Shown here: one piece after another, positions 57,208-62,366 of the stretch | How positions within the stretch are numbered: position 1 is the stretch's first letter | Layout of the letters: each line of letters opens with the position of its first letter | DNA from: Fibrobacter sp. UWR3 | Lineage (GTDB): Bacteria; Fibrobacterota; Fibrobacteria; Fibrobacterales; Fibrobacteraceae | Reading direction: 5' to 3' | NCBI RefSeq assembly: GCF_900143055.1 | Contig: NZ_FRCW01000010.1 | Span: 1 to 64,000, forward strand | Length of the DNA: 64,000 bases | The notes under the pieces: model-generated | Database searches by the model: none | What the model was told of the DNA's origin: nothing | The model's input: only the letters and a program-made list of their open reading frames with translations | Made by a program: the position numbers and the translations under genes

Positions 57208-57702
57208 TCATCTCATTACTTTACAAGGTACACCAACAGCAGTTGCTCCTGCCGGAATATTTTTATTAACCAAAGTACAAGCACCGATAACAGCATCCTC
57301 TCCAATAGTTAAACCATTGCCTTCTGGAGTTTTACTAATAACACTTGAACGCATCCCTATATATACGCCATCTTCAATGGTAATCGGCAAATGTACTTGA
57401 TTCCGCCCGTGGCAAGCAAAGAACACACCATAAGAAATGATGCAATTATTGCCAATTTTCAGCATATCGTAGCACATATCATCCAAGTAGCAGCGCATTC
57501 CTATAAAACAATGCTTACCAATCTTAAAGCCACAGATTCGATACAACAAAATTCGGACCCAATTGAGAGGACAATATGGAGCCAAGACCTGTGCAATAAA
57601 TTTTCTAATAGGTTTCACCATAATTGTAAGTATAGAATAGTTGAAATAATATGGAGCCGGCCTACCCTTAATTTTCTCATAAAGCCATTTAAATATAAAC
57701 AT
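57208..57702 (-). CDS. Hexapeptide-repeat acyltransferase
   Basis: A 164-residue beta-helix acyltransferase. CGFKIGKHCFIGMRCYLDDM, VFFACHGRNQVHLPI and IGMRSSVISKTPEGNGLTIG are hexapeptide coils, ending IPAGATAVGVPCKVMR. The start is ATG 57702, which overlaps by one base (TGATG) the stop codon of the glycosyltransferase fragment lying upstream; this is a relic of coupling to a glycosyltransferase gene. A GTG at 57705 is an alternative. Acetyl transfer to sugar is likely. Confidence 0.88.
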   Translation of the reverse strand: MFIFKWLYEKIKGRPAPYYFNYSILTIMVKPIRKFIAQVLAPYCPLNWVRILLYRICGFKIGKHCFIGMRCYLDDMCYDMLKIGNNCIISYGVFFACHGRNQVHLPITIEDGVYIGMRSSVISKTPEGNGLTIGEDAVIGACTLVNKNIPAGATAVGVPCKVMR

Positions 57703-57779
57703 CACCCCCTCCCCACGTACTTAATTTTCTTCCATACGCCAAAGAACAGGTTTCGACCGGTATTAAACAGAGATAGGAA
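57702..57779 (-). pseudogene. Duplicated 3' end of the glycosyltransferase gene
   Basis: Minus-strand codons read SLFNTGRNLFFGVWKKIKYV-GRG-stop, the same as the end of the intact gene at 59225 except Met to Ile. DNA identity over 57709-57775 against 59232-59298 is about 90 per cent by eye. The stop overlaps the acyltransferase ATG. The copy marks one edge of the AlbA_2 gene insertion. Confidence 0.85.
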
Positions 57780-57786
57780 CTGAATA

Positions 57787-59145
57787 TTATTCTGCATAAT
57801 ACCCACCGGTTTTTCGACTTCCCCGATGCTCCACTTCGCCTTCTTTAGCAAGAATACTCAAATTTTTCCGAACATAACTATCAGAAAAACCTGTTGCATT
57901 CATCATGTCTCCTATACTGCAACCAGGATTTTGCTTAACGAATGACAACAGACGGGCTCTGGCAGGAGATTGTTTCTCAGGTTTATCCGCCACTTTATCC
58001 GCCACTTTATCCGCTACTTTATCCGCTACTTTTTTTGAGGATACAGTCACTTTGAGACCTCCTCCTAAAATTTCGAACTTCGGCTCCTGCAAGCCTGCAT
58101 CACGGAACAACTGAATAACGCGAGTAACGCCCGAGCCATATTTTTCAATTTCTCCAAGCAAGTGAAAATGATTAGCTATAGCCTTATTACGGAGTGTTGA
58201 AAGATAACGGTTGTGCACTAAATCGTCAACGCTTATATCTCCAGGAAGTATTCCAGGATTAAAGAACTCAATATAATCCGAAAACACCTTCACACAAGAT
58301 TCAGACGGAGAACGATAATCCCTATGGACTATCATATTCAAGATTATTTCACGCAGAGCGTCTAACGGATAGTCCCAAACCAAGTCGTTTTCAGGTTTAC
58401 CTGTTATTACGACAGCACAATTGATATGTTTTTTTACAAATTCAAAAATATGATCTACCTGACTCACCAGGTCGCCATGGGCCTCATCCCTATCCTTGAT
58501 TATCGTCGGTGTCTGGAAGAAACCCATCTGTACTGCGGTATTTATATGCCAGTCCTTGGCAAAGAGCATTTCCGCAGCAAACGTCAGTTTTCCATCACGC
58601 AACAGGCGATTTTTCCGCAAAAAATCAACCGGATCCATGGGCAAATGGTAGCCACGGCGGTTTATGCGTTCAATGCTTTGCTTGACCTTCCTTAACGATA
58701 TGTCGTCCATTCTCCCAGATTCATCAAGGACATAATCCCAGCTAGAGTTCTGCGTTTGCAAGGTACAGTCGCCAATTTCAGACGGAGACATCAGATGGTT
58801 GCTATTCTCATGACGCATAAAGCAACGCCCCTGAACAGACACGGGCTTAATTGCGCTTTCACGAACAATTAAGGCGACCAACTTTTTGCCCTTATACTCA
58901 ATCAGCTCAACATCAGGTATTTGCTCGGGCTCGGTCTTACTTTTTATTTCATTCAGCCAGTTCTGCACACTTTCTTCGCCAATTTGCACACCATGTACTT
59001 TCGTTAGCGATTTTAACCCGACAAATATGGTGCCGCCTTTTTTATTCGCAAAGGCACAGACAGATTCTATCGTCTCTTGATTAAAGGACGATTTGAACTC
59101 AACCTTACTGTTTTCGCCCTTGGAAATCATTTTTTCAAGCAGCAT
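57787..59145 (-). CDS. AlbA_2 (Schlafen-type) putative DNA-binding/ATPase protein
   Basis: A 452-residue protein unrelated to polysaccharide synthesis. The N-terminal AlbA_2 domain is KGENSKVEFKSSFNQETIES with GGTIFVGL and HGVQIG. The middle is the RecG-like/HATPase_c_4 region (LDALREIILNMIVHRDYRSP, FNPGILPGDISVDDL, RYLSTLRNKAIA, EKYGSGVTRVI). A VADK x4 tract at about 372-388 links to a C-terminal winged helix. Members are widespread and some serve in phage defence or gene control; the role is not fixed. It lies between two copies of a glycosyltransferase 3' end, so it is a probable cassette insertion. Confidence 0.88.
   Translation of the reverse strand: MLLEKMISKGENSKVEFKSSFNQETIESVCAFANKKGGTIFVGLKSLTKVHGVQIGEESVQNWLNEIKSKTEPEQIPDVELIEYKGKKLVALIVRESAIKPVSVQGRCFMRHENSNHLMSPSEIGDCTLQTQNSSWDYVLDESGRMDDISLRKVKQSIERINRRGYHLPMDPVDFLRKNRLLRDGKLTFAAEMLFAKDWHINTAVQMGFFQTPTIIKDRDEAHGDLVSQVDHIFEFVKKHINCAVVITGKPENDLVWDYPLDALREIILNMIVHRDYRSPSESCVKVFSDYIEFFNPGILPGDISVDDLVHNRYLSTLRNKAIANHFHLLGEIEKYGSGVTRVIQLFRDAGLQEPKFEILGGGLKVTVSSKKVADKVADKVADKVADKPEKQSPARARLLSFVKQNPGCSIGDMMNATGFSDSYVRKNLSILAKEGEVEHRGSRKTGGYYAE
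57982..58029. repeat. Four 12-bp units coding VADK
   Basis: TTTATCCGCCAC twice, then TTTATCCGCTAC twice. Twelve bases equal four codons, so slippage would change linker length without frameshift. Confidence 0.9.
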
Positions 59146-59224
59146 CAGCGTTACACCCTATCTAAAAAAACTTGTTTTTAGGTACAATTCTAAACATAAT
59201 AAAAAACATTTTGAAATGCAATAA

Positions 59225-60145
59225 TCATCCTCTCCCCACGTACTTCATCTTCTTCCATACGCCAAAGAAGAGGTTTCGGCCGGTATTAAACAGGGATGCG
59301 ACCGGGTTCATTCCTTCGGCTTCGCGGTAGAGTTTGTAATGCCACTTGATCAAAGAAAGATGGCGAGATTGCCCCAATGGGAGATCCCCGCCTGCGCGGG
59401 GATGACAGGAGTGTGTTATCGAGCCGGTGCGTTTGCGGTAGCGGGCCAGGTTTTCGTCCAGGAGGTAGCAGTCGGCCTTGCGACAGATTTTCAGCCACAT
59501 GGCGTAATCGTTGTTCTTCTGGATTTCAGCAATCTGGATGTCGCCCACCACCTCACGGTCGTATATTACGGTAAGGCATCCGGGCCAGCAGTAGTTATAC
59601 ATTCCCGTCTTGGTAATGCGTTTCGGGCCACCGACAATCGTTCCCGTGGGCCTGCCATTCTCATCCATTTCCTCGTAGCGCGTATAACTGAAGGCATAGC
59701 CGTTCTTTTCCATGAAGGCTATCTGCTTTTCCAACTTGTCGGCTGCCCACAGGTCATCGCTGTCGAGGAAGGCTATCCACTTGCCTTTTGCCTCGCGGAG
59801 GGCGCGGTTGCGGCTGTAGGCGGCACCGCGATTGCGGTCGTTTTTTAGGTAACGGATTTTCGAAGAGAGATCCCCGCCTTCGCGGGGATGACAATTAAAT
59901 TCGCGGGGATGACTATTAAATTCGCGGGGATGACAAGTAAATTCGCGGGGATGACAACCGTTCGAGTTCACTTCGGCAAGCTCAGTGAACTTGCCTACGA
60001 CGTCATCGGTGCTGTCGGTGCTGGCGTCGTCAACGATAATCAATTCCCAGTCGGTGTATGTCTGCGCAATCACGGAGCGTATGGACTCCGCGATATACGG
60101 GGCCGTGTTGTAGCTGGGCATGATAATCGACACCAAGGAAGACAT
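59225..60145 (-). CDS. Family 2 glycosyltransferase carrying in-frame repeat insertions
   Basis: A 306-residue GT-A enzyme. SLVSIIMPSYNTAPYIAESI, WELIIVDDASTDSTDDVVGK, GAAYSRNRALREAKGKWIAF and LDSDDLWAADKLEKQI are canonical. Between the DDAS motif and the GAAYSRN segment sit about 40 extra residues, including CHPREFN-type units repeated four times and HPREGGD. A second insert near the C-terminus reads CHPRAGGDLP. Both are translations of palindromic repeats. The core motifs are intact, so the enzyme may still work. It ends where a duplicated copy of its own 3' end flanks the AlbA_2 gene. Confidence 0.9.
   Translation of the reverse strand: MSSLVSIIMPSYNTAPYIAESIRSVIAQTYTDWELIIVDDASTDSTDDVVGKFTELAEVNSNGCHPREFTCHPREFNSHPREFNCHPREGGDLSSKIRYLKNDRNRGAAYSRNRALREAKGKWIAFLDSDDLWAADKLEKQIAFMEKNGYAFSYTRYEEMDENGRPTGTIVGGPKRITKTGMYNYCWPGCLTVIYDREVVGDIQIAEIQKNNDYAMWLKICRKADCYLLDENLARYRKRTGSITHSCHPRAGGDLPLGQSRHLSLIKWHYKLYREAEGMNPVASLFNTGRNLFFGVWKKMKYVGRG
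59383..59410. repeat. GTCATCCCCGC-family palindrome in the glycosyltransferase gene
   Basis: GATCCCCGCCTGCGCGGGGA followed by TGAC; on the minus strand it codes CHPRAGGDL in frame. Confidence 0.85.
59867..59991. repeat. Palindrome plus 21-bp repeats in the glycosyltransferase gene
   Basis: A GATCCCCGCCTTCGCGGGGA palindrome is followed by CGCGGGGATGAC units at 59881, 59902, 59923 and 59944, exactly 21 bases apart. A third palindrome, GTTCACTTCGG to CTCAGTGAAC, lies at 59967-59991. All are read through in frame. Confidence 0.9.
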
Positions 60146-60150
60146 TCTAT

Positions 60151-60894
60151 TCAGCCTCCCCTGGATCCTTCGACTTCGTGGATTCTATCGCCTTCGGCTC
60201 CAGAATGACATTCAGACATTGCAATCAGCCTTTTCGCTTCTTCTTGCCCGCGGTCGTATTCCTCGCGGGTGATGCGGCCGCTTGCCAGCAAGTAGTCGCC
60301 GAGGTCGGTCGCGGTGTCGGAGCCTTCTTCGGTGATGTCGGAACGCTTGATAAAGGCCTTGTTCAGCGTAGTGAGTATTATCTTCACGTCACCCAGGAAG
60401 GTGATTTTCTTGATGTACTCGAGGTCGTACTCGATTTTCTTTTCCCAAGTCACGGCGTTCCTGCCGTTGATTTGGGCAAGCCCGCTCAGGCCCTGCCGTA
60501 CAGTGTGGCGCTTGCGCTGTTCGGGGGTCATAAAGACCATGTCGCGCACGAGCTGCGGCCTCGGGCCGATTACCGCCATGTCGCCTTTTAAAATGTTGAA
60601 TAGTTCGGGGAGTTCGTCGAGGCTGGTACTGCGCAGGAACTTGCCGTACGCGGTAAGGCGCACGTCATCGGGGAGCAGTTTTCCAGAAGCGTCGCGCGCA
60701 TTAGTCATGGTGCGGAACTTGACGAGCCTAAAGATTTTTTCGTCTTTACCGGGGCGAGGCTGCGTAAAGAACGGATTCCCCTTCATCTTGAACGCGCCAA
60801 CGACCGTGAGCATCACAAGCAGCGGGCTCAGGCAGCAGATTGCCGCCAGGGCACAGAAGAAGTCCAGAATTCTTTTCAAGTTGTTTGCATACAT
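60151..60894 (-). CDS. Initiating sugar-phosphate transferase (PglC/WcaJ type)
   Basis: A 247-residue polyprenol-phosphate hexose-1-phosphate transferase. N-terminal re-entrant membrane helix (FCALAAICCLSPLLVMLTVV), then FFTQPRPGKDEKIFRLVKFR with the catalytic Asp-Glu dyad region LRSTSLDELPELFNILKGDM and VIGPRPQLVRD. It loads the first sugar on undecaprenyl phosphate. A tail domain (about 190-235) follows the core. The last 20 residues, SECHSGAEGDRIHEVEGSRG, are the translation of a palindromic repeat, so the natural C-terminus has been replaced or extended. With the two upstream genes it suggests a bacillosamine-type sugar. Confidence 0.92.
   Translation of the reverse strand: MYANNLKRILDFFCALAAICCLSPLLVMLTVVGAFKMKGNPFFTQPRPGKDEKIFRLVKFRTMTNARDASGKLLPDDVRLTAYGKFLRSTSLDELPELFNILKGDMAVIGPRPQLVRDMVFMTPEQRKRHTVRQGLSGLAQINGRNAVTWEKKIEYDLEYIKKITFLGDVKIILTTLNKAFIKRSDITEEGSDTATDLGDYLLASGRITREEYDRGQEEAKRLIAMSECHSGAEGDRIHEVEGSRGG
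60163..60213. repeat. Palindromic repeat forming the end of the sugar transferase gene
   Basis: GGATCCTTCGACTTCGTGG and CCAGAATGACATTC are arms of the 6746 family. It is translated as the last residues of the transferase. Confidence 0.8.
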
Positions 60895-60911: not shown

Positions 60912-61108
60912 GATCCTCGCCTTCGCGAGGATGACACATCGGGCGTTTAAGGAAGCGGGGGTACATTTTAATTCAATATAATAAAGTTTTTTCATTTAGA
61001 TCCTCGCCTTCGCGAGGATGACACATCGGGCGTTTAAGGAAGCGGGGGTACATTTTAATTCAATATAATAAAGTTTTTTGATAGATCCCCGCCTGCGCGG
61101 GGATGACA
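60912..61108. repeat. 87-bp tandem duplication with three palindromic units
   Basis: The block from 60912 is repeated from 60999 with near identity to about 61080. Each copy starts with GATCCTCGCCTTCGCGAGGA then TGAC, and a third palindrome (GATCCCCGCCTGCGCGGGGA) begins at 61084. The 231-base spacer between the transferase and aminotransferase genes contains little else. Confidence 0.9.
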
Positions 61109-61125
61109 GCATAGGTCAACCAACG

Positions 61126-62355
61126 CTACCCCTCAAAGCATTCCCTTATGGCAGCGATGATGGCATCTTGCTGGTCGGGGGTCATCTTGTTGTCGCTGGG
61201 GAGGCAGAGCCCGCGGGCGAAAATGTCGGCGCCCACGGAGGTGTCCGCGCCTTCCTTCCCCGAAAAAGCCCTGTCGCCTTCCTTCCCCGCAGCGGTCACG
61301 AAGGCGTGTCCCCGGTAAACCGGTTGCATGTGCATGGGTTTCCAGATGGGGCGACCCTCGGCGTTCATGTCGGCGAGGCTTTCCAGGATTTTCGCGGGCG
61401 TCGCCTTGCCTCTACCCTCGCCCACCGCACATCCATCGATAATCATGCAGCTGAGCCAGAAGTTCGGCACGGAATTCGCCGCATCGTAGGGATTCATCTG
61501 CACGGGCCACCCGGCAAGACCCGCCTTGTAGCGCTCGTAAATGGCACGCTTCTGCGCGATATGTTCCTCGAGGTGCGGCAGCTGCCCGCGCACCACGCCC
61601 GCAATCACGTTGCTCATGCGGTAGTTGTACCCGATTTCCTCGTGCTGGTACCACGGCGCGGGTTCACGGCTCTGCGTGCTCCACTTGCGCACACGGTCCG
61701 CATCTTCCTTGCTGTCGGTAAGGTACATGCCGCCGCTGGAACCGGTGATAATCTTGTTCCCGTTAAAGCTGATGGCGTTGAAGTCGCCAAAACTTCCGGT
61801 CTGCACTCCCTTGTAGCTAGCCCCGAAGCTTTCGGCGGCATCTTCGACCAGGAGGGCATTGTGGCGGGAGCATATTTCGCGAATCTCATCGACCTTCGCG
61901 GGCGTTCCATACAAGTGAACAAGCACAACGAGCCGCACGTCAGGGTAAATTTTGAAAGCCTTCTCAAGCGCCACGGGGTCCATGTTCCAGGTATCGCGTT
62001 CGCTGTCGATAAACACAGCCTCGCCGTTCTCGTAGGCCACCGGGTTGAGTGTCGCGGCAAACGTCATGTCGCTGCAGAATACCTTCTGCCCACGCAGCGC
62101 ACCCTCGCCCGCCCTGGGCACCCCGAACAGACGGACACCCGCAAGGCGCGTGCCCAGATGCAGCGCGGCAGTCCCCGCAGAAAGCGCCACGGCATACTTC
62201 ACGCCCACTTTCTCGGCCACCAGGCGCTCCACCTCGTCGATATTCTTCCCGACGGTGCTCATCCAGTTGGTCTCGTAGGCCTCCTGCATGTAACGGAGTT
62301 CGTCACCATGCATGGTGGGGCTCGCAAGCCAGACTCTCTTTTCAAAGCGCTTCAT
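61126..62355 (-). CDS. DegT/DnrJ/EryC1-family sugar aminotransferase
   Basis: A 409-residue PLP enzyme. VKYAVALSAGTAALHLGTRL, LVEDAAESFGASYKGVQTGS and SFNGNKIITGSSGGMYLT (Lys forming the PLP aldimine) mark the family. EEIGYNYRMSNVIAGVVRGQ is the conserved dimer segment. It probably aminates the 4-keto sugar made by the dehydratase encoded upstream, as PglE does. Start ATG 62355 has AAGGA seven bases upstream; the in-frame codon at 62361 is TTG. Six bases separate the two genes' nearest ends after the dehydratase stop. Confidence 0.93.
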   Translation of the reverse strand: MKRFEKRVWLASPTMHGDELRYMQEAYETNWMSTVGKNIDEVERLVAEKVGVKYAVALSAGTAALHLGTRLAGVRLFGVPRAGEGALRGQKVFCSDMTFAATLNPVAYENGEAVFIDSERDTWNMDPVALEKAFKIYPDVRLVVLVHLYGTPAKVDEIREICSRHNALLVEDAAESFGASYKGVQTGSFGDFNAISFNGNKIITGSSGGMYLTDSKEDADRVRKWSTQSREPAPWYQHEEIGYNYRMSNVIAGVVRGQLPHLEEHIAQKRAIYERYKAGLAGWPVQMNPYDAANSVPNFWLSCMIIDGCAVGEGRGKATPAKILESLADMNAEGRPIWKPMHMQPVYRGHAFVTAAGKEGDRAFSGKEGADTSVGADIFARGLCLPSDNKMTPDQQDAIIAAIRECFEG

Positions 62356-62366
62356 GGGCAATTCCT

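What the first reader, a model, noticed from the sequence alone, without database searches (positions are those of the whole stretch)
59225..60145. Glycosyltransferase gene with several palindromic repeats translated in frame
Seen: two GTCATCCCCGC-type palindromes (59383, 59867), a run of four units spaced exactly 21 bases (59881-59944), and a GTTCACT...AGTGAAC palindrome (59967). All keep the reading frame and add CHPREFN, HPREGGD and CHPRAGGD peptides. The catalytic motifs remain. Known: Rickettsia palindromic elements add peptides inside genes in a similar way. Inference: this lineage tolerates, and may use, repeat-driven protein expansion; 21 bases being seven codons suggests selection for frame.
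Basis: partly seen in the sequence, partly recalled or inferred. Interest (0 to 1): 0.72.

Follow-up and report, generated by a model that had tools for sequence, protein, structure and literature searches.

The report
Palindromic DNA repeats inside enzyme loops
A sugar-transferring enzyme of the gut bacterium Fibrobacter carries short repetitive DNA palindromes, translated in frame, in two floppy loops; this is a known kind of repeat, but in this genus different repeat families keep occupying the same loops of the same enzymes, which makes it a good natural test of how proteins absorb junk DNA.

Summary
The family-2 glycosyltransferase gene (59225-60145, minus strand) of a Fibrobacter species has two in-frame inserts built of genome-wide palindromic repeats. 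Orthologues outside Fibrobacter, and some within it, have empty sites with continuous flanks. The enzyme core is under purifying selection (dN/dS about 0.1), and the inserts are the two low-confidence stretches of the AlphaFold model. The repeat (Y-GTC-ATCCCCGC-GNAG-GCGGGGAT-CTY) has the anatomy of CGTC-1 REPs, the class that includes Neisseria dRS3 and Rickettsia RPE-6. Translated REPs are therefore known; Fibrobacter does not appear in the main survey. The claim that 21-base spacing shows frame selection fails as stated: 21 is equally the commonest spacing outside genes (16/41 array groups, against 5/10 inside). A frame filter does exist: all 10 array groups inside genes have periods divisible by three, against 18/41 outside (p = 0.001). 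Two features go beyond the published description: tandem arrays of REP half-units, and turnover, in which related species carry different REP families in the same loop, also in the CobA-HemD fusion enzyme. Best reading: tolerated insertions filtered for frame; no evidence that the peptides do anything. What moves the repeats is unknown; the genome has no Y1 (RAYT-type) transposase.

The parts
59225..60145 (-). Family-2 (GT-A) glycosyltransferase gene, 306 aa, intact frame, dN/dS about 0.1 against the closest orthologues
59867..59990 (-). Site A insert, roughly residues 52-93: GTTCACT palindrome, three half-REP units at 21-base spacing, then one full REP; reads FTELAEVNSNG-CHPREFT-CHPREFN-SHPREFN-CHPREGGD
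   Evidence: pLDDT < 50 at residues 56-90
59966..59990 (-). GTTCACTGAGCTTGCCGAAGTGAAC palindrome, member of a second repeat family (8 copies in the genome)
59902..59955 (-). Three half-REP (head-only) units GTCATCCCCGCG with their 9-base spacers
59869..59892 (-). Full CGTC-1-type REP GTCATCCCCGCGAAGGCGGGGATC
59383..59406 (-). Site B full REP GTCATCCCCGCGCAGGCGGGGATC, reads SCHPRAGGDL; absent from orthologue L070
   Evidence: pLDDT < 50 at residues 244-259
61084..61107 (-). Further copy of the same REP head (61096-61107) just beyond the aminotransferase gene 61126-62361, not in a confirmed gene
   Evidence: spurious ORF reading MIDPRLRGDD

Best explanation
The inserts are copies of a CGTC-1-type REP (a short repetitive palindrome), plus one member of a second palindrome family, that spread through Fibrobacter genomes, mostly between genes, and sometimes landed inside genes. 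In this glycosyltransferase they sit in two loops outside the conserved core. The DNA repeat is open in five of six reading frames, so an insertion with net length divisible by three only adds a disordered peptide. Selection on the enzyme keeps such cases and removes the others. Separately, the left half of the palindrome with its neighbouring bases tends to duplicate in tandem, usually at about 21 bases, in and outside genes; inside genes only periods divisible by three survive. Shown: insertion, frame, genome-wide family, predicted disorder, purifying selection, frame filter. Inferred: that the peptides are neutral, and that tandem duplication made the arrays. Unknown: what mobilises the repeats.
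For: Empty sites with continuous flanks in orthologues (L017, L077, L078, L087, L098, L106 at both sites; L070, L012-L015 at site B). 95 genomic copies of the head, reversed control 0; 74 full elements with an 8-bp stem and 4-base loop. In-frame copies in other enzymes: CobA-HemD, RibD, UvrB (two), a DEAH helicase (two), a biotin/lipoate ligase family protein, U32 peptidase, sodium:solute symporter, ABC ATPase and oxidoreductase, read as HPREGGD, VIPAKAG, KIPAFAGMT or DPRLRGDD. The AlphaFold model has pLDDT < 50 at 56-90 and 244-259 only, with most blocks of the core at 89 or more. dN/dS 0.07-0.18 across the comparisons. Periods divisible by three: 10/10 groups inside genes, 18/41 outside, p = 0.001. 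Adjacent spacers in one array are 83% identical, against 39% between arrays.
Against: Recurrent use of exactly the same loops by different REP families is more than a simple 'land anywhere tolerated' model predicts, unless those loops are the only tolerant ones. No expression or proteomic data exist. The mobilising enzyme is not identified. The first unit of most arrays is not preceded by the spacer sequence (left flank against first spacer 42% identity), so a simple duplication of left flank plus head does not explain how arrays start.
Confidence: 0.86

Rival explanations
1. The peptides have been put to use: repeats in these loops are selected to diversify enzyme surfaces or specificity, and the 21-base unit is selected because it is seven codons.
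For: Same loops carry different repeat peptides in related species; the site B insert is retained between the window and L069, which differ at 38% of synonymous sites in the core.
Against: 21 is about as common outside genes (16/41) as inside (5/10), p = 0.72. The same repeat is read in four frames and both orientations in unrelated enzymes, so no peptide is favoured. The loops are predicted disordered.
Confidence: 0.07
2. Intragenic REPs are docking sites: once a REP is in a loop, other REP families that share the GTCAT...ATC ends replace it by recombination or targeted insertion, so the loops behave as exchangeable cassettes. (An addition to the best explanation rather than a full alternative.)
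For: Window and L010 share site B flanks (ITH-C ... SRHLSLIKW) but carry different REPs (CGTC-1 against GTCATCCTGAGC); site A shows a nested element (L070) and a chimera (L016); CobA-HemD loops behave the same way.
Against: No donor, breakpoint or enzyme found; repeated independent insertion and deletion in the few tolerant loops would give the same pattern. Reading phase differs between some relatives (L012 and L075 against L076), which fits independent insertion better.
Confidence: 0.25
3. Assembly or binning artefact, or a decayed gene in which the frame is accidental.
For: Many of the relatives are metagenome-assembled genomes.
Against: Same inserts in independent genomes (window and L069; L011, L013, L014, L073), intact frames, dN/dS about 0.1, own genome 100% complete in 20 contigs.
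Confidence: 0.02

Closest known systems
CGTC-1 REPs (Di Nocera et al. 2013, PMC3733652), including Neisseria dRS3
   Same: Y-GTC tag, 8-bp stem opening with AT, 4-base loop, conserved 3-base tail, mostly outside genes, no dedicated transposase, some copies inside genes
   Different: Tail is CTY rather than CCA; adjacent copies are head-to-tail (9 of 9), whereas CGTC REPs are reported as mainly head-head dimers with head-tail negligible; tandem head-only arrays; Fibrobacterota is not among the five phyla reported
Rickettsia palindromic elements (RPE-4, RPE-6, RPE-1)
   Same: Palindromes translated in frame inside unrelated genes; RPE-6 is itself classed as CGTC-1; UvrB carries two single copies in both R. 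conorii (paper) and this Fibrobacter
   Different: Here several REP families occupy the same loop in different species; half-unit arrays
RAYT-mobilised GTAG REPs and REPINs
   Same: Short, high-copy palindromes
   Different: No Y1 transposase (PF01797) in this genome; in the genus, genomes with the transposase do not have more copies (median 1 against 4.5)

Membership tests
CGTC-1 REP | Unpaired CGTC or TGTC tag at one end | tested here: met
   position -1 is T 66% / C 32%, then GTC 100% in 74 elements
CGTC-1 REP | 8-bp stem beginning with AT and 4-base loop | tested here: met
   ATCCCCGC / GCGGGGAT around GNAG; position 7 C to T 9% mirrored by position 18 G to A 9%
CGTC-1 REP | 3-base unpaired tail, mostly CCA | tested here: inconclusive
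   a conserved tail exists (C 100%, T 95%, then mostly C or T) but it is CTY, not CCA
CGTC-1 REP | Head-head dimers predominant (typical, not defining) | tested here: not met
   9 of 9 adjacent full copies within 100 bp are head-to-tail; sample limited to fetched stretches
CGTC-1 REP | No association with a transposase gene | tested here: met
   no PF01797 in own genome; no positive association in the genus
Rickettsia palindromic elements | In-frame insertion in unrelated protein genes | tested here: met
Rickettsia palindromic elements | Sequence homology to a named RPE family | not tested
   only class membership (RPE-6 = CGTC-1) taken from PMC3733652
RAYT-mobilised REP/REPIN | Cognate Y1 (REP-associated tyrosine) transposase in the genome | tested here: not met

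The most novel reading that the evidence does not exclude
In Fibrobacter, enzyme loops are standing docking sites where different REP families replace one another in frame, by an enzyme or recombination route that recognises the shared GTCAT...ATC ends, giving a genus-wide, natural loop-exchange process acting on central metabolic enzymes.
Probability: 0.22. Interest if true: 0.72.

Novelty: new variant of a known kind. Interest (0 to 1): 0.45.

Why it matters
It places translated REPs in a phylum where the main survey did not report them, and offers a rich comparative set: dozens of species, the same loops, many insert types. That makes it possible to ask which loops tolerate new peptides, how fast frame-breaking arrays are purged, and whether REP families displace one another. 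It also corrects a tempting inference: a repeat period divisible by three is not in itself evidence of selection for frame, because here the same period dominates outside genes.

Tried and rejected
(1) 21 bases as a sign of frame selection: rejected by arrays outside genes. (2) Mobilisation by a RAYT/Y1 transposase: none in this genome and no positive association in the genus. (3) First automatic calls of 'array inside a gene' for L152/L157/L217, L175, L177 and L239 were rejected by reading all frames: these are shadow ORFs, gene ends or gaps between genes. (4) My first in-gene test was circular (it required one open frame through the array), so it was repeated with flanks scored independently of frame. 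(6) Literature searches for Fibrobacter REPs found no description of them in this library. (7) One script failed on a wrong loop length in its pattern and was corrected.

Full report
What is there. The gene at 59225-60145 (minus strand) is an intact 306-codon family-2 glycosyltransferase (PF00535) beside a sugar-transferase gene and a DegT-family aminotransferase gene, in a Fibrobacter species: the nearest named orthologues are Fibrobacter MAGs and the genome has 3.55 Mb in 20 contigs. The motif GTCATCCCCGCG occurs 95 times in the genome, and its reversed control not once. The GTTCACT palindrome is a second, rarer family with 8 copies within three mismatches.

They are insertions. An alignment of 21 sequences and the DNA at both sites show two inserts. 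Site A lies between the helix after TDxVV and the strand IRYLKN; site B lies between GSI and LIKWHY. Orthologues in Clostridia and other phyla, and some Fibrobacter species, have neither insert and run straight through. The closest empty case at site B is L070 (81% identical): GSISNHSYMSLIKWHY against GSITHSCHPRAGGDLPLGQSRHLSLIKWHY. In the AlphaFold model (43-sequence alignment, mean pLDDT 81) the only segments under 50 are residues 56-90 and 244-259, that is, the inserts. The fold matches GT-A enzymes such as SpsA. By topology site A lies in a helix-to-strand loop, which in GT-A folds is at the edge away from the nucleotide site (inference from general knowledge of the fold, not measured). 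Aligned active-site residues (D39, D40, D128, D130, D131) are invariant. The core is under purifying selection: dN/dS 0.11, 0.13 and 0.08 against L069, L070 and L010.

What the repeat is. In the stretches read, 74 full copies give the consensus Y-GTC-ATCCCCGC-GNAG-GCGGGGAT-CTY, with C-to-T and G-to-A changes at the paired positions 7 and 18 at equal frequency (9% each). This is the anatomy of CGTC-1 REPs as defined by Di Nocera et al. 2013 (PMC3733652): CGTC or TGTC tag, 8-bp stem starting with AT, 4-base loop, 3-base tail. That class contains Neisseria dRS3 and Rickettsia conorii RPE-6. The same paper lists intragenic REPs in many genomes, including two in R. conorii uvrB, and considers that insertions in linkers or loops may be neutral. 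It does not mention Fibrobacter. The repeat is concentrated in the genus Fibrobacter, 0 to 68 perfect copies per genome, and scattered elsewhere in the phylum.

Generality. In this genome and its relatives the repeat also lies in frame in CobA-HemD, RibD, UvrB (two copies), a DEAH-box helicase (two copies), a biotin/lipoate ligase family protein, U32 peptidase, a sodium:solute symporter, an ABC ATPase, an oxidoreductase and others. It is read as HPREGGD, VIPAKAG, KIPAFAGMT or DPRLRGDD depending on orientation and phase. Five of the six frames are open; the sixth has a stop when the repeat is followed by its usual flank (direct reading). No single peptide is favoured, which argues against a peptide function.

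The 21-base question. A genus-wide search for neighbouring heads found arrays in 23 of 61 genomes. They consist of tandem heads (GTCATCCCCGCG plus a short spacer), mostly ending in a full REP. Spacers are 76% pyrimidine and 5% G. Adjacent spacers within an array are 83% identical, those of different arrays 39%. I scored coding potential on each flank independently of frame, grouped arrays that share flanking sequence and read doubtful cases by hand. Ten groups lie inside genes, most of them supported by Pfam matches, and 41 lie outside or at gene ends. Outside, the periods run from 16 to 28 with a mode of 21 (16 of 41). Inside they are 21 (5), 24 (2) and 27 (3). So 21 is not special to genes (p = 0.72), but periods divisible by three are: 10 of 10 against 18 of 41, p = 0.001. 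The frame is filtered; the 21-base period is a property of the DNA process. That 21 bases is two turns of B-DNA is noted, not tested. A related REP family forms similar arrays with periods of about 16 to 27 bases.

Turnover. At site A different Fibrobacter species carry the CGTC-1 REP, a dRS3-like variant, a GTCATTCCCGGC array read in another phase, GTCATTGCGAG, GTCGTCCTGAGG, a nested composite and a chimera. At site B they carry CGTC-1, GTCATCCTGAGC, GTCATTCTGAGG or nothing. Members of one close clade (window, L069, L010, L070) differ from each other at one or both sites, although window and L010 share site B flanks. The CobA-HemD enzyme shows the same in at least two loops, and probably more, across 30 species. 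Either these loops are the few tolerant places and are hit again and again, or one REP replaces another. I cannot decide between these; the differing phases within the clade of L012, L074, L075 and L076 favour at least some independent insertions.

Mobilisation. No Y1 transposase (PF01797) is present in this genome. In the genus, genomes with a full-length one do not carry more copies (median 1 against 4.5, p = 0.06 in the opposite direction). This agrees with the published statement that CGTC REPs lack a dedicated transposase.

Limits. Genome-wide statements come from stretches around matches, not a full annotation. Gene calls outside the Pfam-supported cases rest on a hexamer model trained on this genus. 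Many relatives are MAGs. Translation itself is not shown by any experiment here.

Noticed in passing
window 57688-59297: A Schlafen/AlbA_2 gene (57787-59145, minus) lies between two 87-bp direct copies (86% identical) of the glycosyltransferase 3' end; L069 has the same arrangement, L070 has a single copy and no such insert, which suggests integration of a small element at the gene end that regenerates the C-terminus.
   Followed up: partly
window 60151-60230: The upstream sugar-transferase gene ends in SECHSGAEGDRIHEVEGSRGG, which looks like a translated copy of yet another repeat family (SHSGAEGDRIH also occurs inside CobA-HemD, L171).
   Followed up: no
L235:1851-4493: UvrB carries two single REPs near its C-terminal linker; R. 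conorii UvrB is also reported to carry two single REPs (PMC3733652).
   Followed up: no
L184:425-2179: HemD of a related species has five tandem units (VIPATSSVIPAISSVILAISSVIPAISSVIPAKAGIS) where this genome has two.
   Followed up: partly
arrays in L039-L068 and L149-L241: Spacers between REP half-units are strongly pyrimidine-rich on the head strand (76% C+T, 5% G), in and outside genes; no explanation found.
   Followed up: no
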